Below are positions 1,691 to 64,000 of a stretch of DNA of 64,000 nucleotides, piece after piece. The first letter of the stretch is position 1. Each line of letters begins with the position of its first letter. Under the pieces are notes generated by a model, which was not told where the DNA came from, made no database searches, and was given only the letters and a program-made list of their open reading frames with translations. Origin of the DNA: Brachionus manjavacas (taxonomy: Eukaryota > Rotifera > Eurotatoria > Ploima > Brachionidae); contig JAHQIY010000023.1 of the NCBI GenBank assembly GCA_019054805.1, positions 124,001-188,000 of the forward strand. The letters are read 5' to 3'. Both the position numbers and the translations under genes were made by a program.

Positions 1691-1700
1691 TTAATTAACA

Positions 1701-2705
1701 ATGAGAAATTTTATTCTATTGCTAAATCTTTTGGTAAAACCAGTGTATGGATGTGACCATGCAGTCTTAAACAATTTAAATTTCAGCTTGATTGATTGTT
1801 CAAAATCTTTTGATGTTTTTATCTTGTTAGACACAGCCACCGACATAGAACAGAATGAATTTGATTTAGCCCTATTGGAAATAGCAAATTTTATTAGGAA
1901 AGCTAATATTGGACCCAGATCAACACGTTTGGGTTTAATTACTTTTTCGCATTCAATAAAAAGTGTAATAAGTATAAATTCAAATGAATCCAAGCAGGAA
2001 ATGATAAACCGAGTTGAAACCATCGAGCAATCAGGCAACTTCAAGAATATGAGAAAGGCAATACAGAAAGCAAAATTATTGATAAAAATAAATGAAAGTA
2101 GAGAAGATAATTCCTTAGTTCATCGGATTGTTATTTTTTTGACAAATGGTCTAGGCTTTGATCTGCAATTGATCCAAAGAGAACTCAATATGCTTAAAAG
2201 TCTGTGTCAAATAATAACTGTGGGGATCGGAAAAATGTTCGACAAGACGATTTTAAAATTGATGGCATCTTGTCCGAATTATTTAATATCTTTGGAAAAA
2301 ATGTTGGAATTTTCGCATAGGATAACTTGTTTCACATGCGCAAAGTTACCTTTAAACGCAAGAGTAAAATTAACACTGAACAAGGAAGAAAAACAATTTT
2401 TGAAACTACATATCATTAATTTCAATAAGTTTAACATGGAAATTTTAGACCTAAATTTGACGACTATTTACGGCTCATATGTTTATTTTTATTCATTTTC
2501 AAATAAATTTCATCAGAATTTTTTTGATCCTAGTTTTGAATTTTACGGAAAAAATGAAAAATTGAAAGAAAATTTCCGATTTTTAATACCTCACGGCGTT
2601 CACAATCTTTATTTTACAATCAAAGGTGTAAACTTTGTTAATAAGTTTGAAATTTTAGCTTCAAAATATTCCTTTCGTAAATACTATTCAAGTTTTTTTA
2701 AATAA
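1701..2705 (+). CDS. Predicted secreted vWA-like protein, single exon
   Basis: The frame encodes 334 residues without an intron. Residues 1-17 form a hydrophobic leader ending in VYG before C18, a plausible signal peptide. Residues about 38-200 look like a von Willebrand A fold: DVFILLDTATD as first strand, RLGLITFS as second, a helix MRKAIQKAKLLIK, then RIVIFLTNG and IITVGIG. The metal site is degenerate: DTATD replaces D-x-S-x-S, the middle Thr is missing, and LTNG replaces LTDG, so cation-dependent ligand binding is doubtful. The last 130 residues are unrecognised and hold a CFTC pair. An AATAAA overlaps the stop and could be the poly(A) signal. Neighbours are transposon relics. It could be a lineage-specific extracellular adhesion-like protein; exact function unknown. 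Confidence 0.6.
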   Translation: MRNFILLLNLLVKPVYGCDHAVLNNLNFSLIDCSKSFDVFILLDTATDIEQNEFDLALLEIANFIRKANIGPRSTRLGLITFSHSIKSVISINSNESKQEMINRVETIEQSGNFKNMRKAIQKAKLLIKINESREDNSLVHRIVIFLTNGLGFDLQLIQRELNMLKSLCQIITVGIGKMFDKTILKLMASCPNYLISLEKMLEFSHRITCFTCAKLPLNARVKLTLNKEEKQFLKLHIINFNKFNMEILDLNLTTIYGSYVYFYSFSNKFHQNFFDPSFEFYGKNEKLKENFRFLIPHGVHNLYFTIKGVNFVNKFEILASKYSFRKYYSSFFK

Positions 2706-10092: not shown

Positions 10093-10457
10093 ATGAACGA
10101 GAGAGTCGGAGAAAACAATTCAGATTTGTCCAGTTTGGCTCTGAGACCAAAAATAAAGAAAAAAATTAACAGACAGAGTAACATAACTCTAGAAGAAGAC
10201 CAAGTATCTCTTTCTTCAGTCAGATCTTCGTCAAAGCCATTAGTTTCGATATTGACTGGAAGCAAGAAAGATTCGAACATATTCACCATAATGCCATCGG
10301 CTTCTTCAACTTTACCTAAATTTATGAAACGATGCGAAAAGCACAGTTTAACAAGAATCAATTCACAAAATTCTTTAAATGAGCAAAATACCCTATCGAT
10401 TGCAAATCATCCAAATGCTGATTCCAATAGTAGAAAATCATCGTTCAATAGTGTCAG
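10093..10457 (+). CDS. Large gene exon 1: Ser/Asn-rich N-terminal leader
   Basis: The exon encodes 121 residues plus two bases and ends at a donor, TCAG|GTAAAT, in phase 2. The sequence is low-complexity, rich in Ser, Asn and basic residues (for example [11 protein letters not shown]), and has no signal peptide or membrane segment, so a cytosolic start is likely. The ATG at 10093 is chosen because it is the first in the frame. The frame stays open upstream to a TAA at 10045, and a TTATTAG acceptor-like site ends at 10071. This could therefore be an internal exon with the true start further left. Confidence 0.6.
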
Positions 10458-52400: not shown

Positions 52401-55400
52401 AAAAAAAAGAATCAAAATATAGTAAATAAGCTAAAAAAATGAAAGTTGAAAAGACATAAATTGGAAAAGATTGTTACATGTGGCAAATGTTTAAATAGTT
52501 CAAGTTTCAGGAAAAAAAGAAGCAATAGTAAGGTAGCAATTACACAATGGAGTTCATAATTACATTGAATTTTTTCTATAAATAAAAAAACTTTTCATTC
52601 AACTTAATTGATTTCGATTGTTAATTGATTGTCTTTCCCTTTAAAAAAAAACACCGAAAACTGATCTTATTGTTTTATTCAACACCATTGTTTAAAAAAA
52701 ATTAAAAATACCGAAAACTGATATTACTTTAATTGTTTTATTCAGTGTAACTTTTCAAAAAATGAGAAAATGATAAATGTTCTTATTTTTAACTTCGCTA
52801 AGTTGAATTAAAACGGCTAGAATAAGCTTACTCCTTGATTAATCAATTAAAATTAACGGTTCATGGCTGGGTCTATAAAAACATAGTTCTTAATTTTCTT
52901 AGAAGCATTAAAAAAACCTTTATTAGAATCTCAATCTAGCACACCCAGGATTCCTCGCTCATCGACATTTACCATAGCCTCCGAATCCAGCAGCATAACT
53001 AACAAAAAAAATTGGAATTTTTTTTCAGGTTTACTCACATATTCTAAACGTTGAATAATTGTAAAACTAATTCTTATGAAATATTAAAAATTTTCAAAAA
53101 AATAACGTTATCGACCCATTTGGCCGATAACGTTATTTTTTCTATTTTGGACGGATAAGAGTTAAACTATTCTTTTCCTTGCTTGAATTCATTTTCTGGT
53201 GAAGAAATACAAAGCGGGAAAATTGCAGCTGTGGCTACAAAAATGGAGGCTAAAGATATCCCCAGAAAAATGTAGCTTCATTTTTTACTCTGGTAATCCG
53301 TCAAAAAACATTAAGCTAAGTCTAAAACTATTTGGAAAACAAATACCCTACACTGACTCCCCAGTCTTCCTTGGAATAAAATTTGACCAAAGTCTTTGTT
53401 TCAACTCCCAGGTTGAACTCATTCGTTTTAGATGTCATGATCGCGTAAATAAAAAAGGTCTATTGTAAATTATTGTTAAATGATTTTAATGTCAAAAATT
53501 TTAATGTCAAAAATGAAATAAGGATTTTAATGTTAAAATATTTTAATGTCAAAAATGAAATAAGGATTTTAATGTTAAAATTTTCTGATGTTAAAAGCTA
53601 TAGTCAATAAAGATAATTAAAAATTTGTATTTTTTGTAATTTTTATTAAGCAAGGACAAAAAAAAAACAAAAATTAATTAATTAAATGGTTGAACGCCAT
53701 GTTTTTCCAAAAATTCGGATGCTAATTGAATTTTAACTTTTTCTTTTATTTGATGCTTCAAACTTAAAACAGCAGCTTCCCGGTCTTTTTTCGAAATTTT
53801 TTATTGTTTAAAAAAGTTAATTTTGTTCAATTTTTAAGTAAATTTTGGACTACTCAATATTTTAAAGGGTAAAAATTTAATTTTTATCAAAAGAATGCTG
53901 ATTTCAAAACAATTTCGGACTTCTATTAATTCAAAGCTTTTTTTTAAGAAAGCGGTCAATTAGTCTTTTTTAATTAGGCAAATTAAAATAGAATAGCATC
54001 ATTTTTTAACATTAGATTATTAATTAAGATTTAACAATAATTTCCTTATTTAGCAAATAACATTTAATTCCTTATTTAATTTTTAACATTAGATTCCTTA
54101 ATTAAGATTTAACATAAAACTCACTGACATTAATTTTTTGACATTAAAATATTTTAACATTAATTTACAGTAAATCAATAAAAAAACCTTTATTGGAGTC
54201 TATAATGCACTTATAGGTTCCATTATAGACTATAGTTTTTTCATCTTATCCCGTGTCTCCCAGACAAACATTCAAAAACTGCAAGTAATTCAAAATACAT
54301 GTTTTAAATCAATCTATCATTTACCTTATGACACTCCTTCTATCCAACTTTCTGGCCTTCTCAAAGACCAAAAGGTTGATAGAATTGAGTCTAGACTCAG
54401 AATTCTGCTCGAAAAATACATAAAAAAAAGTTTAATATATAAAAACACACTCATTACTTCACTCATACAGGATTATATTGATGTTTTTGTTGAAAGCTCA
54501 AGAAGTTCTGAACTTAAAACCCTCCTCTGTAAAGTCTCAAATGAGCTATTTAAATGGACAACTGTTTTTCTGTAACATTTCCGATTTCTTTTTCAACTTC
54601 TAATGTCATTTTATTAATTTAATTAATTCAACACAACTTTTTATATGGACACTTTTTTAAAATTTTAAATACCAAAGGCGAAAGGAGTTCCATTACTCAA
54701 AGCCTTTATTTCTTTTGAAATATTAAATAAACTATTAACAACAACATTAAAAAATTTAATAACTTTTGATCTAAAAGTTTAAAATATATTCTGTAAATGC
54801 AGCATGATGCAACATTCATGGTTGCATCAACTGTAAAAGTCTGCTAATGGTGTGCAGAATCTCTGCAAAATGCACCAAGCTCGATTATATTGAAATTTAA
54901 TTTCTGCATAACTCTGCAAATTTAGCACGCTTTGATATTTGATGCAACTTTGAAAGTTGCACTATATTGCATTTACAGAACTAAGTTTAAACCTTTAGAC
55001 AAAAAGCTAATTCAATTTTTTTTACATTTTTTCTGTTCTTTTTTTCATTCTGTACTGAATTTCACAAAACCATTATATTAAATTTCAATAATAAAATCAT
55101 TCCTAACATTGGTATTTTTGTTTTTATTATGCGTGAAAATAACATAGAAAATAATTACATGCCATTAAAAAAGTTTAAATTGCTAAACTTCGCACTAATA
55201 ATTGAAAAAACTGTTGGACAATATTTTCGAAATTTTAAAATGAAATGCTGGACAAAAAATTCAAAAAAATATCTGTATTTAAAAAAATCTATTTTAAATT
55301 TTGTTAACAAAGACGCAAAATGACACTACTCAATCAAGAATCGGAAGCTAAAAAATCATTTGATGATAGCGATTTGCTTTATGACGAAATCGACAGCAAC

Positions 55401-58400
55401 ATAGTTTACTCGGTGGCTTCCATACGAAAGCATTATGTTCACGGAGAATTGGTGAATGTGAGCGATCCATACGAAGGCTTCATAGATTTAACTTGCATCA
55501 AACACATTCGCCAAGGATGCATTGACAAACAAATGTACTCCCAGATTCATTTGATCGCAACCACAAGATATTCCATTACTGATTTCGATGAAAAGAACAT
55601 AATCTGTTTGGTTTACGGTAATTCTTTTTCAGAAAATCGGAGCCTCTATTTTATCGGTGCCAAGCAGAGCATTCACGTTTTCTTTGTTGGCCTCAGCGTT
55701 TTAATTGACAACCTGAAGCAACATTCCGCATTGACACCAGATAATCGGACCAAATGGCTCAAAAGCTTGTACCTGAATCTTTTTTTTGGCCAAAAGAACA
55801 AAAACTTCAGAAACCCCACTCCAATGGAAGCGTTGCTCGCTTTTGGAGGTCGCCAATTTAACATTATGACTCTGGAAAACCATCTGAACCAAGCCATAAG
55901 CAACCTATTGATATCTTCTTATTCAAATCAGAACATCAATCATGAGCAACAAGAGCCGGAGTTGAAACACAAAAACAGCATTGGTACCACTTCTTCCCAG
56001 TCGTCAATTAACAAAAGAAAGTCGAGCACATCGATCACCTCGTTTAGGCTGAAAAACTTTAAGGGCTCGAATCAGCGAAAAATGACCAAGGCCGAAATGA
56101 TCACAAAAAAAGATGCGGAAATCGAAAAATTTGTCCAAAACAAAAGTGTGGCATTAAAATCAAGATTTTCCAAGTTGAAAAATTTCAAGAACAAGTCTTT
56201 GATGTACGACCTGTTCACTCGGTCGTCGTCAGCATCACTGGATCTTCACAATTCGTTTGATTCCGATAACCTCGCCAAGAACAGGCCTCTCAATTCATTC
56301 AAGCCACCAATAATTTTAACTTTGCTACCCAAGCCAGCAGAACCAAGTTTGATCAGTCCTTTGGTGAAACACCAGAGTGTGTGCTCGTCGTCAGGAGTTT
56401 CTACTTTGCGCTCAGGACACAGTTTCAATCCTTACCAATTGAATCCACAGAATTCGTTCAGCTCTTCGTCGCCTCCGAATGGAAGCTCGGCGGCCAACAT
56501 CTTCGGCAACAATTTCAATTTCAAATTTTTAACAGAAACTGGAGAAGCCAAACTCAGCTCAATTCTGCTGGACACGTTCATAGAATTCGACCAGTTTGTG
56601 GACCTTTTTAAATCATTTTATGTTTACATGAGAAAAGATCTAAAAGATTTGTTTGACAAGTATGCGATCAAAGTGAGCCAGAACACGGCTGATGACATGG
56701 AAAGAACTTGGCAAAAGCACAGACAATTGGTCAAAAAACTTGTGTATGACGACAAAAGTTTATCCAGTGGGCATTTGGATGACGTCAAAAGAATTAACAA
56801 TGAAAAGACCATTTTGACTCGCAATAACTTGAGGGATGAGCTGAAATTTTTTAATTTAGAGCAAAATTTTGACAACATAAATTCGACTAGTGAAAAATAC
56901 AATGCCCTCAAAGCGGACCACAAAAATCAATTGATCAAAGTGAACAATAGTCGTTTATTTAATGATCTAATCTGCTCGAATTCAGTAGCACCCTATTCAA
57001 TTAATTTTTGCTCCGAATTGGTCCTGCTCAATCATTTTAGTCAAGTGCAAGGTGCGGACAAAAAGGAATTTCACGAATTTTATGCTATTAATGTCAAACA
57101 ATTGAGAGAGTTTGTTGCCAATGAACAATGCGAATATTTAAATGACCAAGAACTACAATCGATTATTAGCAAACATGAACCAAATGCTTTTTTTAGGTAA
57201 GTTTTATTTTTTAAATTTGAAAAATTCTCACAAGAAAAAACATGTCAAAGACCTATAATAATTTATTTATTTCAAAAATTAAGCCAGATTTGGCGATGAC
57301 AAAAAAAATTAACATTAAAGAGAAATATTAAAAAAGGGAAATTTTATAAAATTAAAGGCTATTTTTTGTCTCTCTTAGGATTCAAGAATGAGAACGGGTA
57401 ATTAGACTTATGAAAAAAGGAAAGTATACAATAGGAAATATAAGTTTACAATCAAAAAATTCACTTAAATGTATTAAATATTTTTATTGTTGTATCAATA
57501 ATTTTTTTATTGTAAAATTTTTAAAATATAAGTCGATTCAAGCCAAAAGAGATAATTCACATTTAGTTTAATCATAATTCAAACAATTTGATTTCTTTTT
57601 TCCTGGCTTATTACGAGTTGCGAAAAAGCCTTCAGATACAAACCCTTTGAGTCTAAGTTTTAATAATCTGACTAAAGCTAATAAGTGTTTACAAACATAA
57701 AATCTATGGAAATGGACACTACCACAAGCACAATAATGGTGTCTATGATAAATAGTATTAGTGTCATAACTCACATAATACTTATTATCATAAATGTAGG
57801 TCTTATCATTGTAATGCCTAAACATGTCCATGTTTATTTTTTTCGAACGGTCTATTAAGTCTTTATCCGGTACTCTGTAATACATAACCTCCTTCTCTTG
57901 TCTTGAATGATAATTGACTACTTTGGTCATTACGATCTTTAACATTTCATGAATAGTATAACTAATGTAGTTTGTGTACAAGAGCTTAATGAGTTTATTG
58001 TACGATTCAAGACACGAATTAGTAATAGCATAACCTTGAGGAACATGAAACAGTTGCCATCTCCAAAATCTGACACTAAACCATTCTTTTTCAAAGTAAG
58101 CTCTAAAATCATGTAAACCCATACTTGGCCACTTGTTCTTGAGTCGAACCTTCAGCCATTGTTGTTAACTTTTCGAAATTTAAGTAGAAATGCTTTTTTG
58201 TTGTATTGTTTTAAATTTGTAAGTATTCTTTTAAAACTGTAAGTATAGTTTTAAAACTGCAAGTAAACTCTATTAAAATTATTGTCAAATTTTAATATTG
58301 TTGTATACTCATTCAATATTAAGTAAAGCTGAATTATTTGTTGTAAAATTTACTTTTCATTAGTATAAAAGAAAAATAGCATAAGTGAAAAGGACCATTC

Positions 58401-61400
58401 CCATTCAAGAATACATGCTAAACAAAAAAAAAAAATCTTCATAAATTTTATCTTTACAATTTAGAAATAATTTCTTTTTCAACTTATTATATTTGTTTTT
58501 TTTTTTCTTCTTTTCTTTTAGCAGTCAAAGACAAATAGAGTAAAGACCAATATTTCGATTATTTGACTATTCGATTATTCGATTATTTCATTATTCGAAA
58601 GCAATTATTTTCTAAGTGATATTTTATAAATTCAATGAAGAACAAATATTTTTGTTTAATTTATAAATAATCACAAATATGATTTTCTTTAAGCAAACTG
58701 TGGAGTAAACGGGGTCCTGCGCAGCCCCGGTTTAGGGACTCCTAGTAATTAAACAATAAGAGAGATTTTAATAATTTAATACTCGTATAATCGAATAATC
58801 GAATAGTCCTAGGATTGAATAATTGTATTTAATAAAATATTGTCCATACATCTCTGGCTGGTCCCTTGTTTTCTGATTTATTTTCTAGATTCTTGACCAA
58901 ACTAAACTTTTCTATTCCATTCACTATTTTGTACATTTCAATCAAGTCCCCTCTCACTCTCCTTTCACTCAGCTTTGTCAATCCTAATTTTGTCAGCCTC
59001 ATTTCATACGGCATGTTTCTTACAGACATAGGTTTTTTGTTGCTCTCTCTTGCACTTTTTCCAACGCATTCACGTCCATTTTCATACTTGGATTCCAAAC
59101 CTGCACTTCGTAATCTAGGTGGGGTCTCACCATAGATATGTACAATCTTACCCAAAGTCTTTCCTCTCTACTTGTAAACGTTCGCTTTAGCATTCCAAGT
59201 ACCCTTCTCGCTTTCGCACAAGCATTTTTCACTTGGCTGGTTCATTTTAAATCTGATGAAACCATCACTCCAAAATCCCTTTCACACTCTGTGGTCGCTA
59301 GTATAACATTCCTGTTGCTTTTTTGAGTATATTTATTTCTTTCATTTAGTCTGCCGAAATGCATTACTTTACATTTGTTGGCACACAGTCCCATATGCAA
59401 AACCTTTATCCATTGACATACTGCATCCAGATCTTTCTGTAACATCGCTCTCTCATAAGCATTATTAACTATACCAAATATTTTTGAGTCATCTGCATAA
59501 AATTCCATTCTATTTGAAACGCAGTCAGGTAGGTCATTTATGTACAGAACAAATAGCAGGGATCCGAGTACAGACCCTTGCGGAACTCCACTCAGTACCT
59601 CTGACCATCTAGAAGCTCCATCATCAAGTACAACTCGCTGAGTTCTCATACTTAAAAAGTCTACGAGCAAACTTTTCTCACCACTATTTTCTCACCTAGC
59701 CCATAACCACGTAGCTTATGAAGAAGTCGTTGATGCGGTACCGTATCAAAAGCCTTTGAGAAGCCTAATAGTATTTCATCCACACTGTTACCTTTGGCCA
59801 ACTCAGTCGTTATCATATCAAGCGTTTCAAGAAGGTTCGTTACACATCCTTTCTTTGGAACAAATCCATATTGACTTCCAATTATTAGATTATTCTCTTG
59901 AAGGTTAAACATTAGTCGGTCCCTGACAATACTTTCCAGAACTTTACAAGCGACTGACGTAAGTGATACGGGTCGATAATTAACTAGCTCTAATTTACTT
60001 CCTTTTTTGTAGATCGGCGACACATTTGCTCTTTTCCACTCTTTTGGGATTTTTCCTGTCTCTAATGATTTTGCGTAAATTATCTTCAATATCATTTTGC
60101 ACTGCGCACTTACATCGTTTTTGCGCAGTTTTTTAGTATCAGTGGATGTACTTGGCCTGTGCCCATCGATTTTTTGCCATTTAATTTCTCTAGTCTCCGT
60201 TCAATCAGATCCTCGATTAGCTCCTGCATGACATTCTCAATATCAAAAGTAGAGGAAGTAAGTAAAGGAAAAAAAGACATATTATCATTGGTTTCTTTAT
60301 GAAACTGATCTCAATGAAACTGATCCTTTAATTGCTCAATTTTTAAGAACAAATAGAGATATTTTAGATAAAAAAATCTATAAAAGTAAATAAAAAGATA
60401 TTTATTTTTACTCTAAATTTTCTGTAAAAAGTTTGATTTGTTTTTTACAGATACATCTGTAACATAGAGATTATAATTATTAACCTAACTCCGGTCTTAT
60501 AATTTAAAAAGAAACAAATTAAATGCCAAGTGAAACTTTGCTCCAAGTACTAAAATAAAAAAGTGAAATATACATTTTTAAAAATTGTAATTGAAAAATT
60601 AAAAAAACTTAAAAATATTAGGAAACAAAATAATTCGATTTAAATTTTTGTTTTTTAATAAATGAACCAAGTTTTTACATTAATTATTTTTTCAAAAAAA
60701 TTAATGTAATTATTAATATAAATTATAAATAATTAATTATAAATATAAATATTTTAAATCAATTCCACATTTTTAAATTTTTAAATTATTCAAAATAAAT
60801 ATCTATTTTTTTCAAGGGCTAGAAATTTACTTTCGTTTGTTGGATTCTCAAAATTCCTGCTGGACAAAGATAATTTTTTGTTCGAAATGGACAAGGAAGA
60901 AAATTTTAAATTGTTTGACAATCAGAAAAAATTCAGTTACCATGATTATGATAAACTTTATAATTCTGATAAAATGGACTACCCATTATCATTCTATTAC
61001 ATCGCTTCGTCACACAATACATATTTGACTGGACACCAACTTAAAGGCGAATCTTCTGCCGAAATATATCGAACTGCGCTGAGATCTGGCTGCCGTTGTG
61101 TTGAACTGGATGTGTGGGACGGAGACGACGGATCGCCAGTCGTCTATCATGGCAGGACCTTGACTAGCAAAGTTAGCTTCACAACAGTGGTCGAGGTAAT
61201 CAATGAAAGTGCCTTCGAGACCTCTCCATTTCCAGTCATTCTTTCAATCGAAAATAGATGCTCGTTACAGCAGCAAGTCAAGATAGCACACATATTTGTG
61301 AAAATTTTCGGCGACAAACTTGTCAAAAATTATATTCTTGAACCTGAGTCTGATTTTCCACTTCTGCCATCGCCAAATCAACTAAAACATAAAATTTTGA

Positions 61401-64000
61401 TCAAAAACAAAAAGCTGCATAGCATGACTCTCCAAGCACTTGAGCTGGGTGCCAATGGAAAAAAAAACTCGACAAAAAAAATACAAAAGCAGTCTACGGA
61501 AAATGTGGATTTCAATTTGAATACCTCTAGAGAAAATTTGGAAATTTTCGATGACAATTCATCAATCATTACAAATTTCATCACTGGACCAGTGAAGCGG
61601 ATCAGAACAATCTCAACGCGACTAGCAACCACTTCCCACAATGAGCCAAGCACCAAATCAAACCAAATTCATAAAAGCAAATCTCTCACCGACTCTTCTT
61701 TCAATAAACTAAACATAAAAAATGACAACAAACAAGATTCGTTTAATACGGACGCAAATTTGAACCTTCCCGCATCCCCTACCACACTGACAAATCAGTC
61801 AGTCAACCCTTCGATCTCGACTTCAATTGCCGGAATAAGCACTGTTTTGGAAGCGCATCAAGACCTCAAGAAACTCAGGTTCCAACGAAATAGTTTGAGA
61901 AACAATTCTTTGGAAGTAAATCCATCTCTTCACAGAACTCAATCTATTTTGCCAATTACTTCATCAAATGTAAAGCTTAATCAACTTAACATTTCCAATC
62001 CAACCAATGCAGCAAAAAAACAACCCAAATCAAATCAACCAAATCCACAGATTGCCGAAGAGCTCTCTAATTTGGTTGTGTACACCCAAGCTGTCAAATT
62101 CAGAGAATTAAACTTGATACCTGCGAACATTTACACAGGAAAGACATTATCTTATAATCCTTTTAAATTGAGTCCTCAATATTCGACAATTCAAAATTCA
62201 AATAATAACAGCAAAAAATCTCTCAATAACTTGAATAATTCGAGAATATTTCACAATCAAAATCAACTGGTGACCCAGCAGAGTCTAAGCAGTTCAGGCA
62301 CAGATGGTTCTAAATGTGATATCAAGTATAAAAGCTTTACTGAATCTAATTCTCAAATTCAACACAACCAATTGTCTCACATTCAAAATAGTAATTTTCT
62401 GACAAGCCAAGTGAGTGAGCATCAAAACCAGTCAAACAATACCCCATGTAGCTATCAAATAGTGTCTTTAAATGAGTCCAAGGCAAAGCAACTGTGCAAA
62501 AAAAGACCAACGGATGTAATATGGTAAGTTAAATAGATTTATGATTTGAAAAATAGTTTTTTGACGGGAGTAACGAGAAGTTTAAGTTTTGTTAAGATTT
62601 TCTGCCAAACACGGTCACAAAAAGTTTGTAAGTTGACCGTAATAAAAAAATTTTTGGATCATTTTTTTAACCATTCACTCACACAGCTTTATCGACAATT
62701 GCTGCTTGGCCACTCTGCTTTTTATATAGCACTTCATTTCGTTTTTTGAATCTTTTAAAAAAACCGTATTTTCTCGCGTAATATCCCACAATTTTTGCAA
62801 TAATAATAACCCCTGTACATTATATGAAACATTAAGTGACATTAAGTGAAGGTAATTTTACTCTAAAATTTTGAATAACATTGAACTTTATGTTCACGCG
62901 TGGTTGAAGCTCAGTCATTTTGATTCAGTTAATCTTTTTAAATTAATCTCTCATAAAAGAGTTTTATTTCTTTAGTCTCATATAAACAGCTATATTAATT
63001 TGGTTGACTCCTCGGACTCTGATTCAGACCTAAATTCGGACTCAGAAAGTTATTCTGATAATGAATAATATTTATTTATTTATTGAATTGAATTAACCTC
63101 CTTTAAGGAGAAGTAAAAGAAAATAAAGATAAAATTTTTTTTTTTTTTTTGTGTTTTTGTGTTTTTTTAAAAAATGAAAAATTATTATCTAAAAATAAAA
63201 TTACAAAAATAAAAAAGGAACATTAGTTCGAAAATAGAAAAAGGGATGAAAGTTAGAAAGCAAGATAATTCGGACCAAAATTCATGAATTTCTTTTATTT
63301 TGAATTAGCTCATTTAGGAGAGTTCTGTAATGTTTTAATTTTAAATTGCAAAGACATAAACAAATTGAATCAGATATACCATTATTAGAAATCAGATTAA
63401 TCTTAAGATTTTCTTTAAGTTGGTTTATATTTACTGAAATTTTTGAGGTTTCAATTTTAAAGTACTTGGAAATAAGTACTAAGTCGGAGGAAAAAGATTT
63501 ATTAGAGGGGGGGGGGGTCACTTAGCATATATTTTAAAAATTGTGATGATAGATAATTATATTTAATTGTATCAATAAAAGTTAGTTTTGAAAATAGATA
63601 AAGTTCATCAAAGTTGAATAATTTTAGTACTTTTAAGACTCGTGACATGTGACAGTAGGCTTTTAAACCAAACATTTGTCTAATTAAGTTGTTTTGTAAT
63701 TTATTTATTGAATCCTTTGTGGTCGAATTAAGAGTAAGAGCCTCAAGACCATATGTGAATTTAGATAAGCAAAATGTTTTGTATATAAAAGATTTGAATT
63801 TAGGTGAAGAGGTAGGACTATTTTTAGGCAGAAGATATGAAATTCCAAAAAAGCTGCTCTGAACTTTTTTAAAATTTATAACTGCCTGTGTGTTAAGGTC
63901 AAGATTAGAATCTATAATGAATCCTAAGTATTTTAACTGATTTGCTTCTTCAAGTTCGGATCCATTAAGGTGAAATACCGACTTAAATAATTGAGTGCCA
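10093..64000 (+). CDS. Giant PLC-epsilon-like gene, ANK-ARM-REM-FERM-CDC25-PH-EF-PLC (partial, spliced)
   Basis: Fourteen exons (listed in the summary) splice with matching phases into about 4,390 residues; the 3' part lies beyond the window. Order along the protein (approximate): Ser-rich leader 1-146, ankyrin repeats 250-405, coiled coil 742-828, ARM-like helices 829-1460, REM C-terminal half 1962-2035, FERM F2/F3 2050-2410, CDC25 2582-2950, PH-like 3025-3120, EF-hand region 3600-3860, PLC X box 3880-4030, Y box from 4240. Known PLC epsilon hydrolyses PIP2 to IP3 and diacylglycerol, is driven by Ras/Rap and Rho GTPases, and its CDC25 domain activates Rap. From the CDC25 domain onward, order and motifs agree with animal PLC epsilon. 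The N-terminal 2,500 residues do not correspond to anything I know in that family. Exon junctions are inferred from splice consensus and phase; transcript evidence is absent. Confidence 0.8.
10458..11832. other. Intron 1 sequence, no gene seen
   Basis: AT-rich intron DNA with long A and T runs. Short frames near 10671-11361 are Lys/Phe/Asn-rich by base composition and match nothing. No mobile element end was recognised before 11833. Confidence 0.45.
11833..12174. mobile_element. MULE-type MITE with 9-bp duplication
   Basis: A 342-bp non-coding element with inverted ends GGGGTTGTGAAGTTC, flanked by GATAATCAA on both sides (11824-11832 and 12175-12183). Long inner arms contain AGAAAAACTTGAATAAC and TTTTACAGAACTGAATTA with their complements. 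The centre carries TGCAGA-type words. A 9-bp duplication fits Mutator-like elements. The inner motif (TTCTGTAAA.TGC, TCTGCAAAATGCA) recurs at 39406-39720 and 54775-55065. Confidence 0.65.
12298..12370 (+). CDS. Large gene exon 2 (25 codons)
   Basis: A 73-nt exon between ACAAATAG and AAG|GTACAT. Joined to exon 1 in phase 2 it reads [18 protein letters not shown] and then a Lys-rich end, and it closes in phase 0. The clean acceptor and donor, conserved-looking residue mix and exact phase fit support it, although it is too short for independent recognition. Confidence 0.6.
12431..12690. mobile_element. Fold-back element related to the hAT-type MITEs
   Basis: The left arm TGATAATTTGTTCCT..GAGTTGTTTAAAAGTC is matched in inverted form by the right arm GACTTTAAACAACTC..AGGAACAGATTATC. 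The inner part has AAGTCAAGTCC-type words like the MITEs at 5600 and 41301. No clear target duplication was found. Confidence 0.5.
12691..14728. other. Intron 2 sequence, no gene seen
   Basis: AT-rich DNA with scattered stops in all frames. A stretch near 13128-13200 is a little richer in GC but gives no readable protein. Confidence 0.4.
14729..15010 (-). pseudogene. Transposase C-terminal tail with AT-hook motifs (MULE-like)
   Basis: The minus strand encodes an acidic linker between two basic AT-hook-like motifs, [11 protein letters not shown] and [12 protein letters not shown], ending ELTLSK and a stop. A GRP tail after a SWIM zinc finger is seen in the MULE proteins of this window (34588-35883 and 37130-37600), so this is probably the 3' remnant of another copy. 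It has no zinc finger of its own. Confidence 0.4.
15011..16149. other. Intron 2 sequence, no gene seen
   Basis: AT-rich. The stem AAAGAGCTTTAGCTCGGCACAG near 15305-15326 is inverted relative to TACCGAGCTAAAGCTCCTTC at 52315 and is probably a LINE 3'-end hairpin. Confidence 0.35.
16150..16800 (-). mobile_element. CR1-like LINE fragment, interrupted
   Basis: The left part (ATAATAATAAT tail and CAGACTATAAGCAATATTTTAATC) matches the 3' end of the CR1-like copy at 28204-28830. The right part encodes, on the minus strand, [15 protein letters not shown] and then [12 protein letters not shown], the same reverse transcriptase tail as [22 protein letters not shown] there. The middle (about 16345-16600) is unrecognised and may be a later insertion. 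Confidence 0.5.
17103..17363 (+). pseudogene. Unrecognised transposon-like frame
   Basis: The plus strand stays open for about 85 codons with the segments [26 protein letters not shown] and [17 protein letters not shown], ending KKKWKAK and a stop. A tail with GCCAAATCTGACGTAATTTTTG and AATAATAATAAT follows (17495-17540), as at a non-LTR 3' end, so it is probably the last coding part of a retrotransposon. I do not recognise the protein. Confidence 0.35.
17824..18877. repeat. Fold-back element with tandemly repeated arms
   Basis: The left arm (17824-17935) is a series of TGTCCTTTA/TGTCCTATA words. The right arm (about 18290-18877) is a tandem array of AGTAAAGGACACTAAAGGACA units alternating with ATTTAATTCTTTATTAAG and GAATATTCTTCTAATATAG. 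The outer ends are inverted copies (ATTCTTTTATGAC and its counterpart). The centre holds GGGGTCCGTGGCGTAGCCC and GGTTTAGGGA, also found at 58700-58740. No coding frame. Arms of unequal array length suggest expansion after insertion. Confidence 0.65.
19050..19240 (+). mobile_element. Jockey-like LINE fragment
   Basis: One plus-strand frame reads [20 protein letters not shown] and then [16 protein letters not shown], the C-terminal thumb of Jockey-type reverse transcriptases, comparable to [15 protein letters not shown] at 54200. Flanks are lost. Confidence 0.5.
19894..21525 (+). CDS. Large gene exon 3: ankyrin-repeat region
   Basis: The 544-codon exon starts after ATCAG (phase 0) and ends at CCA|GTTAGT (phase 0). 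Protein residues about 250-405 hold ankyrin-type helices: [20 protein letters not shown], then [23 protein letters not shown], then [21 protein letters not shown] and [10 protein letters not shown]. Between the first two lies a Cys-containing insert (FRCNFCTNK). A preceding helix, [18 protein letters not shown], may be an extra degenerate repeat. The last 270 residues are Ser/Asn/Lys-rich and disordered. Ankyrin repeats usually bind protein partners, so a scaffold role is likely. Opposite-strand frames over this exon are shadows. Confidence 0.75.
21526..21857 (-). mobile_element. LINE fragment left of the mariner insertion
   Basis: The minus strand near 21790-21857 reads [21 protein letters not shown], a reverse transcriptase C-terminal motif shared with the LINE at 45870-46175. 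It continues the frame of the piece right of the mariner element (23823-24110). The first 250 bases hold no readable coding sequence. Confidence 0.5.
21858..23822 (-). mobile_element. Tc1/mariner-type transposon inside a LINE
   Basis: Ends are inverted repeats ACGGGTGACAA..TAAAATCGAGACG. On the minus strand, 23588-23238 encodes the paired helix-turn-helix region ([16 protein letters not shown], then [16 protein letters not shown] text). 22430-21960 encodes the catalytic half: [27 protein letters not shown] with the second Asp, then [17 protein letters not shown] with the third acidic residue. The middle (22430-23238) is replaced by AT-rich, non-coding DNA and stops, so the copy is inactive. 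Confidence 0.7.
23823..24110 (-). mobile_element. LINE fragment right of the mariner insertion
   Basis: The minus strand contains [14 protein letters not shown], the palm motif of a reverse transcriptase, and then [13 protein letters not shown], which continues as [10 protein letters not shown] beyond the mariner element. The 5' part is missing. Confidence 0.55.
24119..24505 (-). mobile_element. LINE 3' end (same family as 63072-64000)
   Basis: The minus strand ends a frame with [20 protein letters not shown], closely matching [20 protein letters not shown] at 63282-63440. The 3' part shares the hairpin AACCTCCTATAAGGAG and a TATTTATTTATT tail at the left. It is a 5'-truncated copy. Confidence 0.6.
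24694..24716 (+). CDS. Large gene exon 4: putative 23-nt microexon
   Basis: The sequence between TTTTTCAG and AA|GTAATG reads SPKQKSK plus two bases. It is needed to carry phase 0 from exon 3 to phase 2 at exon 5, and its own length gives exactly that change. The acceptor is strong. The donor has an alternative 7 nt upstream that would break the frame in exon 5. Confidence 0.4.
24955..25085 (+). CDS. Large gene exon 5
   Basis: From the acceptor CACAAAG to the donor AAAG|GTTAGT, about 43 codons: [16 protein letters not shown], then Gln/Asn/Ser-rich text. It enters in phase 2 and leaves in phase 1, matching exon 6. The acceptor has a weak pyrimidine tract, so the 5' boundary is the less certain one. 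No domain. Confidence 0.5.
25132..25391 (+). CDS. Large gene exon 6: coiled-coil segment
   Basis: After a 46-nt intron with a clean TTTTTTAATAG acceptor, the exon encodes [17 protein letters not shown], then [17 protein letters not shown] and [14 protein letters not shown]. This amphipathic helical stretch probably forms a coiled coil or the first helices of the following ARM-like region. It ends at CAA|GTAAGA in phase 0. Confidence 0.7.
25574..26869 (+). CDS. Large gene exon 7: helical ARM-like region, part 1
   Basis: 432 codons from ATTTAAG|ACT to CCT|GTAAGC, phase 0 to 0. Helical segments near the start ([33 protein letters not shown]) and end ([18 protein letters not shown], then [11 protein letters not shown]) look like ARM/HEAT-type helices. 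They continue directly into exon 8. The middle is Ser-rich and disordered with an acidic run ([10 protein letters not shown]), a CSC and a CAQC motif that could bind zinc as a pair, and a basic patch. Beyond ARM-like topology, no family is recognised. Confidence 0.7.
27160..27790 (-). pseudogene. SWIM zinc-finger transposase remnant (MULE-like)
   Basis: The minus strand reads [22 protein letters not shown], a SWIM-type C-x-C..C-x-H zinc finger, followed by [10 protein letters not shown] and a degenerate GR.A tail. Upstream text ([17 protein letters not shown]) has no stop over some 40 codons. SWIM fingers followed by a basic GRP tail are the C-terminal layout of the MULE transposases in this window. 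Stops and shifts show it is dead. Confidence 0.5.
28204..28830 (-). mobile_element. CR1-like LINE, 5'-truncated
   Basis: The minus-strand frame 28820-28281 encodes 179 residues of a reverse transcriptase tail: [50 protein letters not shown] and [17 protein letters not shown]. It ends with a stop and a short 3' region carrying CAGACCATAAGC on the plus strand and a (TAG)n tail at 28208-28222. The frame is intact over this stretch, suggesting a young copy. Confidence 0.75.
28831..30467. other. Intron 7 sequence, no gene seen
   Basis: AT-rich. A near-perfect hairpin at about 29582-29636 pairs TTTTACGTAATTTTACATCA with its complement around an 11-base loop. Runs of ACACACTTAAAAA-like words occur at 29930-30065. 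No coding support. Confidence 0.4.
30468..32634 (+). CDS. Large gene exon 8: ARM-like region part 2 and start of the REM domain
   Basis: 722 codons from TTTTCAG|CAT (phase 0) to CTAG|GTAAAT (phase 1). The first 200 residues continue the helical repeat region: [57 protein letters not shown]. About 480 residues of Ser/Asn/Lys-rich disorder follow, with several basic R/K-x-x-S sites that could be kinase targets. The last 18 residues, [17 protein letters not shown], match the conserved Trp..Pro-x-Asp-Phe core of REM (RasGEF-N) domains and run on into exon 9. The usual N-terminal half of REM is not recognisable. Confidence 0.75.
33061..33110. other. Perfect 22-bp hairpin
   Basis: The arms ATTCAATTATGAAGGACCAT.. 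and its exact complement are separated by six T residues. In RNA either strand would fold into a 22-bp stem. The word CAAAGCAATTCAA just upstream recurs at about 32798, so it may be the centre of a small repeat family. Confidence 0.6.
33160..33790 (-). mobile_element. Jockey-like LINE fragment, reverse transcriptase
   Basis: The minus strand, with frame changes, reads [51 protein letters not shown] and [17 protein letters not shown]. These are successive finger and palm A motifs of a reverse transcriptase. It is dead. An endonuclease remnant of the same orientation lies at 36540-36890, beyond the MULE, and may be its 5' half. Confidence 0.6.
33852..34130. mobile_element. Tc1/mariner-type MITE
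   Basis: A 279-bp non-coding element with short ends CCCAGTCA and TGACTAGG flanked by TA on both sides (33850-33851 and 34131-34132). Subterminal ATCGATGA words appear in both orientations. The ends match over only about 7-8 bp, so the call is moderate. Confidence 0.45.
34207..36480 (-). mobile_element. Complete MULE (Mutator-like) transposon
   Basis: A 2,274-bp element flanked by the exact 9-bp repeat TTTCAAAAA (34198-34206 and 36481-36489), the duplication length of Mutator-like elements. The ends are inverted and built from tandem, diverged copies of TAATTTATGGTACAAAAAA-type units (about 34220-34370 and 36255-36470). The interior encodes one transposase on the minus strand, described separately. 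Few frame breaks suggest a fairly recent insertion into intron 8. Confidence 0.8.
34588..36127 (-). pseudogene. MULE transposase with SWIM finger, frame-broken
   Basis: The minus-strand order is: start [10 protein letters not shown] near 36127, an acidic and Lys-rich linker, a zinc-finger-like DNA-binding region ([25 protein letters not shown]), then the catalytic core. The core gives [33 protein letters not shown] with a catalytic Asp, [11 protein letters not shown] (the conserved C..H pair) and [15 protein letters not shown] with the third acidic residue. After a frame break comes a SWIM finger, [17 protein letters not shown], and the basic tail KRKRGRPQK. Breaks lie near 36077, 35935, 35700 and 34760, so it is inactive as read; some could be sequencing errors. 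Confidence 0.7.
36540..36890 (-). mobile_element. LINE endonuclease-to-RT linker fragment
   Basis: The minus strand reads near its start the degenerate endonuclease end MTSDHLPV, then after about 75 codons [10 protein letters not shown] / [17 protein letters not shown] shorter copy of the latter (GGTTTTGTAGAT, TGCGACTGATA on the plus strand) is at 39300-39410. It may be the 5' half of the LINE at 33160-33790. Confidence 0.4.
36917..37824 (-). mobile_element. Deleted MULE-like element
   Basis: An exact 13-bp direct repeat, ATTAAGAAAGAAA, flanks the segment (36904-36916 and 37825-37837). Inside, the minus strand 37600-37140 begins [17 protein letters not shown] and ends with a SWIM finger, [20 protein letters not shown], and the basic tail KKRGRPPKS, but the catalytic DDE core between them is absent. 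The terminal regions contain TTTAACTTAAATAG words. The layout suggests an internally deleted derivative of an autonomous MULE. Confidence 0.55.
38258..38436 (+). CDS. Large gene exon 9: REM domain C-terminal half
   Basis: From TATTTTAAG to CAAATT|GTAAGA. In phase 1 it continues exon 8 as [19 protein letters not shown], then [12 protein letters not shown], the closing helices of a REM (RasGEF-N) domain, and ends [10 protein letters not shown] in phase 0. REM domains brace the CDC25 domain in Ras/Rap exchange factors. Here a FERM module lies between the two. Confidence 0.7.
38437..39299. other. Intron 9 sequence, no gene seen
   Basis: AT-rich. Short inverted words around TAAAATATTGTA near 38752-38775 form a small hairpin. 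No coding support and no recognised element ends. Confidence 0.35.
39406..39720. mobile_element. Non-coding fold-back MITE (GTTCTGTAAATGC family)
   Basis: The left arm TTAGTTCCGTGAATGCAAC..GTACAACATTCAAA is matched by the inverted right arm TTTGAATGTTGTACCATAC..TTCACAGAACTAA. The centre has GCATTTTGCAGAGA. The right side shares TTTTACATTTTTTCTGTTCTTT with 55015-55045. A short LINE fragment (39300-39405) precedes it. Confidence 0.55.
40000..40560 (-). pseudogene. Tc1/mariner-type transposase remnant
   Basis: The minus strand reads [20 protein letters not shown] then FHYAEA, with the second catalytic Asp, and after a shift [20 protein letters not shown] with the third acidic residue. It parallels the mariner at 21858-23822 ([32 protein letters not shown]) closely enough to be the same family. 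The N-terminal half is missing. Confidence 0.6.
40910..41085. repeat. Fold-back repeat
   Basis: The left arm GTCAAAAAGAATGTTCGTTT..GTACTTT and the right arm AAAGTACAAAAAGAACATTC..TTTGAC are inverted copies about 110 bases apart. AAAAAGGA-type words around them (40820-41150) repeat in both orientations. No coding frame. Confidence 0.5.
41301..41529. mobile_element. hAT-type MITE, copy 3 (diverged)
   Basis: A 229-bp element flanked by the exact 8-bp repeat ATTTTGAG (41293-41300 and 41530-41537). The right end ACCACTCTG and inner AAGTCGAGTCCAAGTCC / GACTTGGACC words match the MITEs at 5600 and 7725, while the left end is diverged. It ends only about 140 bases before exon 10. Confidence 0.6.
41673..43487 (+). 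CDS. Large gene exon 10: FERM F2/F3 module and start of CDC25
   Basis: 605 codons from TTCCCTTAG|ATG to AAAGAA|GTATTT, phase 0 to 0. [19 protein letters not shown] marks the start of a FERM F2 lobe. [20 protein letters not shown], then [27 protein letters not shown] and [15 protein letters not shown] form an F3 (PTB-like) lobe resembling talin. No F1 lobe is visible before it. About 150 Ser/Asn-rich residues follow, then [20 protein letters not shown] and [10 protein letters not shown], the first helices of a CDC25 RasGEF domain, reading like human PLC epsilon. FERM modules usually bind membranes or receptor tails. The exon is visibly richer in GC than all the others. Confidence 0.8.
44170..45030 (-). 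mobile_element. Jockey-like LINE 3' fragment nested in the hAT-like element
   Basis: The minus strand reads [20 protein letters not shown], then [40 protein letters not shown], a reverse transcriptase tail like that at 54180-54570. One frame break lies near 44720. The 3' region at the left has GAAGGAGCTTCAC and an A/T-rich tail. Confidence 0.55.
45113..45291 (+). pseudogene. Orphan terminal exon inside the hAT-like element
   Basis: A strong acceptor (TTCACTTATTACATTTTTAG) precedes an open frame of 58 codons reading [20 protein letters not shown], then a Lys-rich end IPLKKYN and a stop. AATAAA follows at about 45349. This looks like the last coding exon and 3' untranslated region of some gene, captured by or belonging to the transposon. 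The family is not recognised. Confidence 0.4.
45370..45585 (-). mobile_element. LINE 3' end nested in the hAT-like element
   Basis: The segment is an inverted, close copy of 54540-54760: it carries the complement of AAACCCTCCTCTGTAAAGTC, ACTGTTTTTCTG and AAAGGAGTT..ATTACTCAAAG. That is the end of the reading frame and 3' region of the Jockey-like LINE. It is 5'-truncated. Confidence 0.65.
45870..46175 (-). mobile_element. LINE fragment (reverse transcriptase C-terminus)
   Basis: The minus strand reads [20 protein letters not shown] and then [15 protein letters not shown], the typical region after the palm of Jockey-type enzymes. The sequence just upstream matches the LINE interrupted by the mariner at 21858-23822, showing that the insertion there split a frame that is continuous here. 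Confidence 0.55.
46714..46859 (+). CDS. Large gene exon 11: CDC25 core
   Basis: From TTAAAAAG to ATCAA|GTAAAC, phase 0 to 2. It encodes [20 protein letters not shown], then [20 protein letters not shown] and RELWLGIK. This is the conserved middle of a CDC25 domain and lines up residue for residue with the PLC epsilon pattern VSSW..A..CWN.GN.NA..E. It is the first exon after the 3.2-kb intron containing the hAT-like element. Confidence 0.85.
46936..48435 (+). CDS. Large gene exon 12: end of CDC25 and PH-like region
   Basis: After a 76-nt intron, 500 codons to AACAG|GTAAAT (phase 2 to 2). A Ser/Asn-rich insertion of about 100 residues interrupts the CDC25 domain. The domain then closes with [20 protein letters not shown] (the conserved catalytic-helix region), [18 protein letters not shown] and [13 protein letters not shown] disordered basic linker leads to [32 protein letters not shown] and [13 protein letters not shown], which correspond to the PH-like segment of PLC epsilon (Q-P-D-N-S-T-L-T-W). 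This exon ties the exchange-factor domain to PLC epsilon in one reading frame. Confidence 0.85.
48573..50482 (-). mobile_element. LINE with 15-bp target duplication, 5'-truncated
   Basis: TAGATTACATAATAT stands at both ends (48558-48572 and 50483-50497). The minus strand encodes a reverse transcriptase: [84 protein letters not shown] and [11 protein letters not shown], ending near 49205 in the first frame. A one-base shift then continues [15 protein letters not shown] to about 48870. The 3' region ends in TTAGAATAAATAAATAAAT. The endonuclease part is missing. Confidence 0.85.
50498..52245. other. Intron 12 sequence, no gene seen
   Basis: AT-rich. A GC-richer patch with AAGGTACGCAGGTTAGGGTT and GAGCAAAAAGGATT at 51604-51655 is not part of any readable frame. 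No element ends recognised. Confidence 0.4.
52250..53161. mobile_element. piggyBac-like element with TTAA duplication, non-coding
   Basis: Inverted ends CTCTTATCCGTCCAAAAT are flanked by TTAA at 52246-52249 and 53162-53165. Next to the left end is the palindrome GGGTCAAAAATGACCC; next to the right end is a hairpin of AAAAATAACGTTATCG with its complement. The interior includes a LINE 3'-type stem (GAGCTAAAGCTC, 52319). No transposase. It abuts the Jockey-like LINE on its right. Confidence 0.75.
53166..54760 (+). mobile_element. Jockey-like LINE 3' half, split by a fold-back element
   Basis: The first part (53199-53460) encodes [20 protein letters not shown] then CSFIFYSG and PVFLGIKFD. After the insertion at 53461-54172 the frame resumes as [37 protein letters not shown] and ends [19 protein letters not shown] with a stop at about 54573. 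The 3' region to 54760 is duplicated in inverted form at 45370-45585. Confidence 0.7.
53461..54172. mobile_element. Fold-back element inserted in the LINE
   Basis: The ends are inverted: TATTGTAAATTATTGTTAAA and the complement of TACTGTAAATTAATGTTAAA. The inner arms are arrays of ATTTTAATGTCAAAAA / TTTTTGACATTAAAAT and GAAATAAGGATTTTAATGTT words. The centre encodes on the minus strand (about 53785-53680) a short frame, [19 protein letters not shown] then [15 protein letters not shown] and a stop, possibly the last piece of a transposase. Superfamily unknown. Confidence 0.6.
54775..55065. mobile_element. Non-coding fold-back MITE (GTTCTGTAAATGC family)
   Basis: The left arm TTCTGTAAATGCAGCATGAT..GCAACATTCA is matched by the inverted right arm TGCAACTTTGAAAGTTGCAC..GCATTTACAGAACT. 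The centre has TCTGCAAAATGCACC. It shares the right-hand TTTTACATTTTTTCTGTTC tract with 39660-39710, and inner motifs with the 9-bp-flanked element at 11833-12174. It ends about 250 bases before exon 13. Confidence 0.55.
55313..57196 (+). CDS. Large gene exon 13: PH-EF-hand region of PLC epsilon
   Basis: 628 codons from TTAACAAAG to TTTTTTAG|GTAAGT, phase 2 to 2. [14 protein letters not shown], then [32 protein letters not shown] and [15 protein letters not shown] follow the order of the segment after the PH-like region in PLC epsilon (F-V-A-P-K..; A-V-E-L-F-G-G-R-R-W). After a Ser-rich basic linker, [20 protein letters not shown] and [10 protein letters not shown] match the conserved EF-hand-region motif [17 protein letters not shown]. 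The end, [13 protein letters not shown], parallels ..I-L-S-I-I-Q-K-F-E-P. The acceptor is short of pyrimidines but is the only site giving the needed phase. Confidence 0.85.
57560..58150 (-). pseudogene. MULE-like transposase C-terminal half
   Basis: A minus-strand frame of 184 residues (58122-57568) reads [20 protein letters not shown], the third acidic motif (N-x-x-x-E-S-Y-N), and after a linker the SWIM finger [20 protein letters not shown], then a basic tail with KPGKKKSN. The same layout occurs at 34588-36127 ([16 protein letters not shown], basic tail). The N-terminal half is missing and the sequence right of 58150 is non-coding. Confidence 0.65.
58545..58805. repeat. Fold-back element sharing a core with 17824-18877
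   Basis: The left arm is made of ATTCGATTATT units (58552-58602) and the right arm of AATAATCGAATAATCGAATA (58783-58803), in inverted order. The centre carries GGGGTCCTGCGCAGCCCCGG then TTTAGGGACTCC, nearly the same as the core at 18068-18110. Non-coding. Confidence 0.6.
58829..60240 (-). mobile_element. CR1/L2-type LINE, frame-broken
   Basis: Minus strand, several frames: [58 protein letters not shown], then [35 protein letters not shown] and the tail [41 protein letters not shown]. All the main reverse transcriptase motifs, including YADD, are present, but shifts near 59670, 59240 and 59040 break them. It lacks the endonuclease part and lies in intron 13. Confidence 0.75.
60241..60816. other. 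End of intron 13, no gene seen
   Basis: AT-rich. One plus-strand frame near 60285-60390 gives [20 protein letters not shown] and a stop after some 35 codons; it has no splice context and matches nothing I know. Confidence 0.35.
60817..62523 (+). CDS. Large gene exon 14: PLC catalytic X box and start of Y box
   Basis: 569 codons from TTTTTTCAAG (phase 2) to ATATG|GTAAGT (phase 2). [17 protein letters not shown] closes the EF region as in PLC epsilon. The X box follows: [20 protein letters not shown] with the first catalytic His and Asn, [14 protein letters not shown] with Glu and Asp of the calcium site, VVYHGRTLT with the second His, and [12 protein letters not shown] with the calcium Glu. 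[17 protein letters not shown] text ends it. A Ser/Asn-rich X-Y linker of about 200 residues precedes [18 protein letters not shown], the Y box start, and [19 protein letters not shown]. The exon ends inside Y. All active-site residues are present, so the enzyme should be catalytic. Confidence 0.9.
62524..63070. other. Start of the last visible intron, no exon seen
   Basis: I looked for the next expected Y-box segment (A-C-Q-L-L-R-T-Y-P-type) and found none. A plus-strand frame near 62997-63069 ends [19 protein letters not shown] and stops; such acidic Ser/Asp tails occur in transposases, but nothing before it is readable. Confidence 0.4.
63072..64000 (-). mobile_element. LINE 3' half, running off the right edge
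   Basis: The minus strand from 64000 reads [78 protein letters not shown] and [20 protein letters not shown], open apart from a run of ten or so G (C on this strand) near 63508. The 3' region carries the hairpin AACCTCCTTTAAGGAG and ends in a TATTTATTTATT tail near 63072. It is the same family as 24119-24505 and related to 48573-50482. Confidence 0.7.

What the first reader, a model, noticed from the sequence alone, without database searches (positions are those of the whole stretch)
10093..62523. One gene fusing ankyrin, ARM-like, REM and FERM modules to phospholipase C epsilon
Fourteen exons join with matching phases into about 4,390 residues. Two shared exons fix the key links directly: exon 10 encodes the FERM module and the first CDC25 helices, and exon 12 encodes the end of CDC25 plus the PLC epsilon PH-like motif. 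Canonical PLC epsilon (human PLCE1, nematode PLC-1) has no ankyrin/FERM front part that I know of. The layout predicts a membrane- and adhesion-tethered enzyme that both activates Ras/Rap GTPases and makes IP3/DAG. An animal RasGEF family with ankyrin and FERM domains may exist separately; if so, this would be its fusion with PLC epsilon.
Basis: partly seen in the sequence, partly recalled or inferred. Interest (0 to 1): 0.9.

Follow-up and report, generated by a model that had tools for sequence, protein, structure and literature searches.

The report
Full-length PLC-epsilon gene in a rotifer
The window holds most of a giant rotifer gene for phospholipase C-epsilon, a signalling enzyme that here carries a long scaffold and talin-like FERM front part; the same long form turns up in molluscs, insects and nematodes but not in the vertebrate versions checked, so it is an old and apparently undescribed design rather than a new fusion.

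Summary
Twelve phase-compatible exons (10093-62523, +) encode 4,373 residues without a stop; related sequence continues to about 84.7 kb. Profiles from 14 non-rotifer proteins find ankyrin, two ARM blocks, two REM halves, FERM F2 and F3, CDC25 and PLC-X in order. A predicted structure makes the ARM block an armadillo solenoid; FERM is closest to talin F2-F3.

The interpretation needs correcting. It is not a fusion peculiar to this animal: 42 of 138 retrieved proteins carry all eight tallied modules, from rotifers, molluscs, a nemertean, arthropods and nematodes including Caenorhabditis elegans. A hemichordate model has FERM; eight of eight vertebrate PLCE1 scored lack ankyrin, ARM, REM and FERM signals. 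Ten paper searches listed no description of the layout. Best reading: a PLC-epsilon long form present early in protostomes; tethering by the front part is inferred. Weak points: joins of exons 1-5 rest on order only, exon 1 is unsupported, and many annotated models break or start at the REM/FERM junction, so a second promoter or a gene split there is not excluded.

The parts
10093..10457 (+). Exon 1 (tentative): Ser/Asn-rich N-terminus, residues 1-121
   Evidence: Open frame, good donor, phase fits exon 2; no homolog crosses its junction, so unsupported
19869..21525 (+). Exon 2: ankyrin repeats (about 20329-20658) plus low-complexity stretch
   Evidence: Pfam Ank_2 1.8e-8; leave-out profile 63.2 bits; collinear with Adineta P0009 and Mytilus P0016
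24941..25085 (+). Exon 3: short linker exon
   Evidence: Open frame and phase only; no homolog crosses its junctions
25132..25391 (+). Exon 4: start of ARM block 1
   Evidence: Leave-out profile ARM1 17.0 bits over residues 798-895, exons 4-5
25574..26869 (+). Exon 5: ARM block 1 (to about 25831) and start of ARM block 2 (from about 26687)
   Evidence: ARM2 171.5 bits over exons 5-6; junction to exon 6 crossed by 75 of 149 proteins
30468..32634 (+). Exon 6: rest of ARM block 2 (to about 30773), REM N-half (about 30948-31037), long low-complexity loop, start of REM C-half (about 32583-32634)
   Evidence: Leave-out profiles; tblastn of Adineta P0009 30468-31025; single place in the genome
38258..38436 (+). 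Exon 7: rest of REM C-half and lead-in to FERM F2
   Evidence: Junction 32634/38258 crossed by 18 of 149, 38436/41673 by 78 of 149 proteins
41673..43487 (+). Exon 8: FERM F2 (to about 42305, with an insertion), F3 (about 42285-42725), linker, first CDC25 helices (from about 43248)
   Evidence: Leave-out F2 77.2 and F3 32.2 bits; talin best in PDB, E 0.0029 for this exon alone; single place in the genome
46714..46859 (+). Exon 9: CDC25 core
   Evidence: Pfam RasGEF 1.3e-6; junction 43487/46714 crossed by 137 of 149 proteins
46936..48435 (+). Exon 10: CDC25 with a long low-complexity insertion, CDC25 end (to about 47701), start of the PH-like part (about 48020-48421)
   Evidence: tblastn of P0009 and P0001; junction 46859/46936 crossed by 55 of 149 proteins
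55313..57196 (+). Exon 11: PH-like part (about 55407-56054) and EF-hand region (from about 56490)
   Evidence: tblastn of P0009 and P0001; junction to exon 10 crossed by 2 of 149 proteins only
60817..62523 (+). Exon 12: EF end, PLC X half (about 60962-61420), X-Y linker, start of Y
   Evidence: Pfam PI-PLC-X 4.3e-59; junction 57196/60817 crossed by 131 of 149 proteins

Best explanation
This is the ortholog, in a Brachionus-like rotifer, of a full-length PLC-epsilon whose layout is ankyrin - armadillo - REM - FERM (F2-F3) - CDC25 - PH - EF - PLC X/Y - C2 - RA, present early in protostomes and inherited vertically. Shown here: the exons, the module order, collinearity with single annotated proteins in several phyla, and a PLC-X half with its usual catalytic motifs. 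Inferred: the ankyrin and armadillo blocks are protein-binding scaffolds; the F1-less talin-like FERM, placed between REM and CDC25 where Epac (recalled) has its RA domain, ties the exchange-factor unit to membrane lipid or to receptor or adhesion tails; active Ras-family or Rho GTPases bound by the C-terminal half (known for mammalian PLC-epsilon) trigger PIP2 hydrolysis, while CDC25 loads Rap at the same place and so sustains the signal. Rough odds by step: gene identity 0.95; one continuous long polypeptide 0.87; tethering by FERM 0.5; GEF activity in this species 0.5.
For: Module order beyond chance in a leave-out test; unbroken homologs across the four key junctions; 42 of 138 proteins with all eight tallied modules, 38 of these 42 aligning across the REM/FERM junction; tree of CDC25 plus PLC-X roughly follows animal groups; armadillo fold for the ARM block; talin F2-F3 as nearest solved FERM, E 3e-13; REM halves match REM domains of other genes of the same genome, hhalign 75% and E 2.5e-5 against at most 2% for six controls; no paralog of the FERM or ARM exons in the genome; C. 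elegans PLC-1 is needed with filamin in a stretching tissue and in epidermal morphogenesis (PMC3650001 and PMC2274882, abstract starts, passages), which fits a tether but does not test it.
Against: No RNA evidence. B. calyciflorus P0001 starts exactly at exon 8, in 13 of 138 proteins the F2 hit begins within the first 30 residues, and 5 of 10 short N-terminal models end between REM and FERM, so that junction is where annotations break. Pfam misses REM in the window (16.1 bits against 28.3) and in three of three other joined REMs; the REM C-half was found in 44 of 138 proteins and in 21 of the 42 complete ones, not in C. elegans. The REM-FERM-CDC25 model was unusable, mean pLDDT 40.8. The Brachionus CDC25 lacks a segment that molluscs, arthropods and C. 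elegans share and carries an insertion of about 110-130 residues. Nothing here tests membrane or adhesion binding.
Confidence: 0.72

Rival explanations
1. Two neighbouring genes, or two non-overlapping products: an ankyrin-ARM-REM protein (exons 1-7) and a FERM-CDC25-PLC-epsilon protein (exons 8 onward) with its own promoter. The long join would be wrong in this rotifer.
For: P0001 of B. calyciflorus begins at exon 8; F2 starts within the first 30 residues in 13 of 138 proteins; 5 of 10 short proteins end between REM and FERM; exon 8 opens with ATG; its donor scores poorly.
Against: 78 of 149 proteins, among them rotifer P0002, P0003 and several bdelloids, run across this junction; close relatives of the split models are continuous; the junction is in phase.
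Confidence: 0.12
2. Both: a long form and a short form from an internal promoter at exon 8, so that the enzyme is made with and without the ankyrin-ARM-REM front.
For: Long and short isoforms are listed for one species under source names (Mytilus californianus P0016 and P0015, Centruroides P0066 and P0081); vertebrate and several arthropod models resemble a short form.
Against: Isoform lists are predictions by their sources; no start-site data here.
Confidence: 0.35
3. A recent, rotifer-only fusion of a RasGEF with ankyrin and FERM to PLC-epsilon.
For: Only the contrast with the vertebrate layout.
Against: The same order in molluscs, a nemertean, arthropods and nematodes, with a tree that keeps the sampled groups together apart from rotifers joining nematodes.
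Confidence: 0.02

Closest known systems
Long PLC-epsilon (PLC-1) protein of Caenorhabditis elegans, P0089, 3,487 aa
   Same: Ankyrin, ARM, REM N-half, FERM F2-F3, CDC25, PLC-X and RA in the same order
   Different: REM C-half not detected in the worm; the rotifer has longer low-complexity loops and an altered CDC25
Mytilus californianus P0016 and Adineta steineri P0009 ('uncharacterized' or 'unnamed' in their sources)
   Same: All modules, collinear with the window model
   Different: Shorter loops; about 25-49% identity per aligned block
Vertebrate PLC-epsilon (PLCE1)
   Same: CDC25, PLC-X and RA
   Different: No ankyrin, ARM, REM or FERM signal in eight of eight proteins scored
Talin FERM, F2-F3 lobes
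   Same: Nearest solved structures by profile, E 3e-13; a Trp in F3 lines up with the talin Trp after the Lys-Arg pair
   Different: No F1 lobe between REM and F2: in 41 of 44 proteins the two hits lie at most 22 residues apart; no integrin binding tested
KRIT1 (ankyrin plus FERM, binds Rap1; recalled)
   Same: FERM match, E 8e-4; ankyrin and FERM in one protein
   Different: Much weaker than talin; KRIT1 has no GEF or PLC (recalled)
Epac/RapGEF4 (REM-RA-CDC25; recalled)
   Same: REM and CDC25 with another domain between them
   Different: That domain is RA there and FERM F2-F3 here; CDC25 match weaker than to SOS1 or RalGPS1

Membership tests
PLC-epsilon | CDC25 domain ahead of a PLC catalytic core in one protein | tested here: met
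   RasGEF and PI-PLC-X in linked exons; junctions crossed by homologs
PLC-epsilon | Catalytic X half with its usual motifs | tested here: met
   PF00388 198.7 bits; SSHN, ELD, YHG and SIEN motifs kept in alignment (motif roles recalled)
PLC-epsilon | Y half, C2 and C-terminal RA domains | tested here: met
   Beyond the window: P0001 residues 2499-3421 match at 71421-84729; Y, C2 and RA1 are clear by homology, RA2 only as the P0001 C-terminal match; no Pfam scan of these exons was run
PLC-epsilon | Closer to PLC-epsilon than to other PLC classes | tested here: met
   Protein search returned PLC-epsilon entries by name; a PLC gene on contig 8 looked different by eye
RasGEF (CDC25) exchange factor | Intact exchange surface | tested here: inconclusive
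   A shared segment after the GLK motif is replaced and an insertion follows; no activity data
REM (RasGEF_N) | Curated Pfam score | tested here: not met
   16.1 bits against 28.3 in the window, nothing in three other members; profile-profile comparison does support REM, 75% and 2.5e-5, so it is filed as REM-like
FERM | F2 and F3 lobes | tested here: met
   FERM_M 43.7 bits in Mytilus P0016 but 18.2 against 23.8 in the window exon; talin F2-F3 3e-13 by profile
FERM | Complete three-lobed FERM with F1 | tested here: not met
   No room for F1 between REM and F2 in 41 of 44 proteins; an F1 elsewhere was not sought
Armadillo repeat | Helical ARM solenoid | tested here: met

The most novel reading that the evidence does not exclude
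The bilaterian ancestor's PLC-epsilon was a much larger, adhesion- or cortex-tethered enzyme with an ankyrin-ARM-REM-FERM front, still present in C. elegans PLC-1; the vertebrate form is a shortened descendant that lost at least the talin-like FERM (a hemichordate model still has it) and possibly the rest, so that work on mammalian PLCE1 has missed half of the ancestral regulation.
Probability: 0.4. Interest if true: 0.75.

Novelty: new member of a known kind. Interest (0 to 1): 0.55.

Why it matters
PLC-epsilon is studied mostly in mammals, where a 2026 review says the N-terminus shares no sequence homology with other proteins (PMC13022664, passages). A long form across protostomes, with a talin-like FERM inside the exchange-factor unit, would give this enzyme a physical anchor. 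It sits in a worm gene, plc-1, with known phenotypes in stretch-driven calcium signalling and epidermal morphogenesis (PMC3650001, PMC2274882), so the question can be tested directly.

Tried and rejected
REM-FERM-CDC25 structure (alignment A2, Stegodyphus as subject): mean pLDDT 40.8 with five sequences, not searched further. Rotifer-only fusion: rejected. Separate ankyrin-FERM RasGEF family: not found in one search with the ARM block (96 candidates, 38 hits; 37 have named sources and all are protostomes, one has no name). That search needs shared 5-residue words and proteins of 0.55-1.75 times 2,324 aa, so absence outside protostomes, in cnidarians for instance, is not shown. FERM relic in vertebrate PLCE1: at most 2.9 bits in eight proteins scored; a more sensitive profile-profile test was not run. 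Duplicate or paralog: one place each for the FERM and ARM exons. Rfam: no match in the window at gathering scores. Exon 1 joined to exon 2 by similarity to Adineta: 7 of 200 shuffles as good, not significant.

Controls and limits: the iterated profiles included the window and all 138 proteins, so one search is the clean test. Two of seven REM loci, those with stops inside (L016, L018), were left out of the comparison; the joined REM set there included the window. The tree joined rotifers with nematodes, probably a long-branch effect. Protein counts are clusters with near relatives and isoforms among them. In one search only the 7,981 candidates sharing most words were scored.

Papers: ten searches listed none whose title or abstract start describes this layout. 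Passages were seen of three (PMC13022664, PMC2274882, PMC3650001); the rest only as listings. 'Not described' holds for those searches of open-licence papers.

Full report
The window lies at 124,001-188,000 of contig 23 of a 114-Mb, 61-contig genome. The closest named relative of the protein is Brachionus calyciflorus P0001, 66% identical over the searched part, so the host is a Brachionus-like rotifer (inference).

Gene model. From open frames and splice signals I assembled 12 exons: 10093-10457, 19869-21525, 24941-25085, 25132-25391, 25574-26869, 30468-32634, 38258-38436, 41673-43487, 46714-46859, 46936-48435, 55313-57196 and 60817-62523. They give 4,373 residues with no stop. The gene continues past the window: P0001 matches at 71421-72080, 77839-78681 and 83848-84729 in extended window coordinates.

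Is it more than chance? Profiles built from 14 non-rotifer proteins detect every module in the window model, in the order of the relatives, while 50 shuffled copies and the reversed model stay at or below 5.3 bits. The weakest are the REM C-half (15.0 bits) and ARM1 (17.0 bits). The joins were tested by asking whether homologs run unbroken across each junction, with at least 8 aligned residues on both sides: 26869/30468, 75 of 149 proteins; 32634/38258, 18; 38436/41673, 78; 43487/46714, 137; 46859/46936, 55; 48435/55313, 2; 57196/60817, 131. The four most upstream junctions got 0 of 149, because the sequence there is unconserved; ankyrin before ARM is the order of complete relatives, but exon 1 has no support.

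Distribution. Of 138 proteins from two searches, 42 carry all eight modules of the tally (ankyrin, ARM2, REM N-half, F2, F3, CDC25, PLC-X, RA), and 36 carry only CDC25, PLC-X and RA, among them vertebrate PLCE1 and short arthropod and nematode models. The 42 include bdelloid rotifers, molluscs, a nemertean, arthropods and nematodes with C. elegans; the REM C-half, not in the tally, was found in 21 of the 42. A third search with the ARM block gave 38 hits, 37 from named protostomes and one unnamed. A hemichordate model has F2 and F3 but starts close to them, so its front is unknown. Eight of eight vertebrate PLCE1 scored at most 2.9 bits for ankyrin, ARM, REM or FERM, against 204-224 for CDC25. 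The CDC25 plus PLC-X tree keeps the sampled groups together apart from rotifers joining nematodes. So the long form was there early in protostomes and FERM probably earlier; whether ankyrin-ARM is a protostome gain or a deuterostome loss is open.

Against a single long product. P0001 starts exactly at exon 8; in 13 of 138 proteins F2 begins within the first 30 residues; of ten short proteins, five stop between REM and FERM and one inside F2. Annotations thus tend to break at one place, the window's 38436/41673. Since 78 of 149 proteins cross it, 38 of the 42 complete ones among them, and close relatives of the split models are continuous, I take long introns and an internal promoter as likelier than two genes.

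Reading. The gene is a long-form PLC-epsilon ortholog. It most likely works as a tethered amplifier: ankyrin, ARM and FERM place the enzyme, Ras-family or Rho input turns on PIP2 hydrolysis, and CDC25 loads Rap locally. Placement by FERM and exchange activity in this species are inferred. Against the second, the Brachionus CDC25 has replaced a segment shared by arthropods, molluscs and C. elegans and carries an insertion.

Literature. The 2026 review (PMC13022664, passages) says that the vertebrate N-terminus shares no sequence homology with other proteins; the words FERM and ankyrin do not occur in its text. Two C. elegans papers seen by passage mention neither; one describes a module figure of PLC-1 with CDC-25 and PH domains. 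None of ten searches listed a paper on the layout. The sequences are in public databases, many as 'uncharacterized protein', so the arrangement is visible in data but, as far as I could search, not described.

Verdict.

Noticed in passing
window 41673 (start of exon 8): The B. calyciflorus model P0001 begins exactly here with a Met, and several arthropod models start or stop at the same junction: a possible internal promoter.
   Followed up: partly
window 46859-47330: Brachionus CDC25 replaces the KSEKLxPFW-type segment shared by arthropods, molluscs and C. elegans with an unrelated stretch and then has a long low-complexity insertion; B. calyciflorus shares this.
   Followed up: partly
window 1695-2702 (+): A separate open frame with a von Willebrand factor A domain, 82 bits.
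   Followed up: no
window 49208-50479 (-) and 59245-60200 (-): Reverse-transcriptase sequences inside introns on the opposite strand; the second lies in two frames and looks decayed.
   Followed up: no
window 23241-23735 (-): Transposase-like helix-turn-helix open frame in the intron after the ankyrin exon, just below the Pfam cut-offs.
   Followed up: no
G000:C11:1283867, 1291384 and 1298901: Three near-equal RasGEF fragments 7,517 bases apart ahead of a stronger RasGEF hit at 1302011: a tandem duplication inside another RasGEF gene.
   Followed up: no
P0117 (Trichinella sp. T8): Named 'beta-4' by its source although it carries ankyrin, FERM, RasGEF and RA domains like the long PLC-epsilon: probably misnamed.
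   Followed up: no
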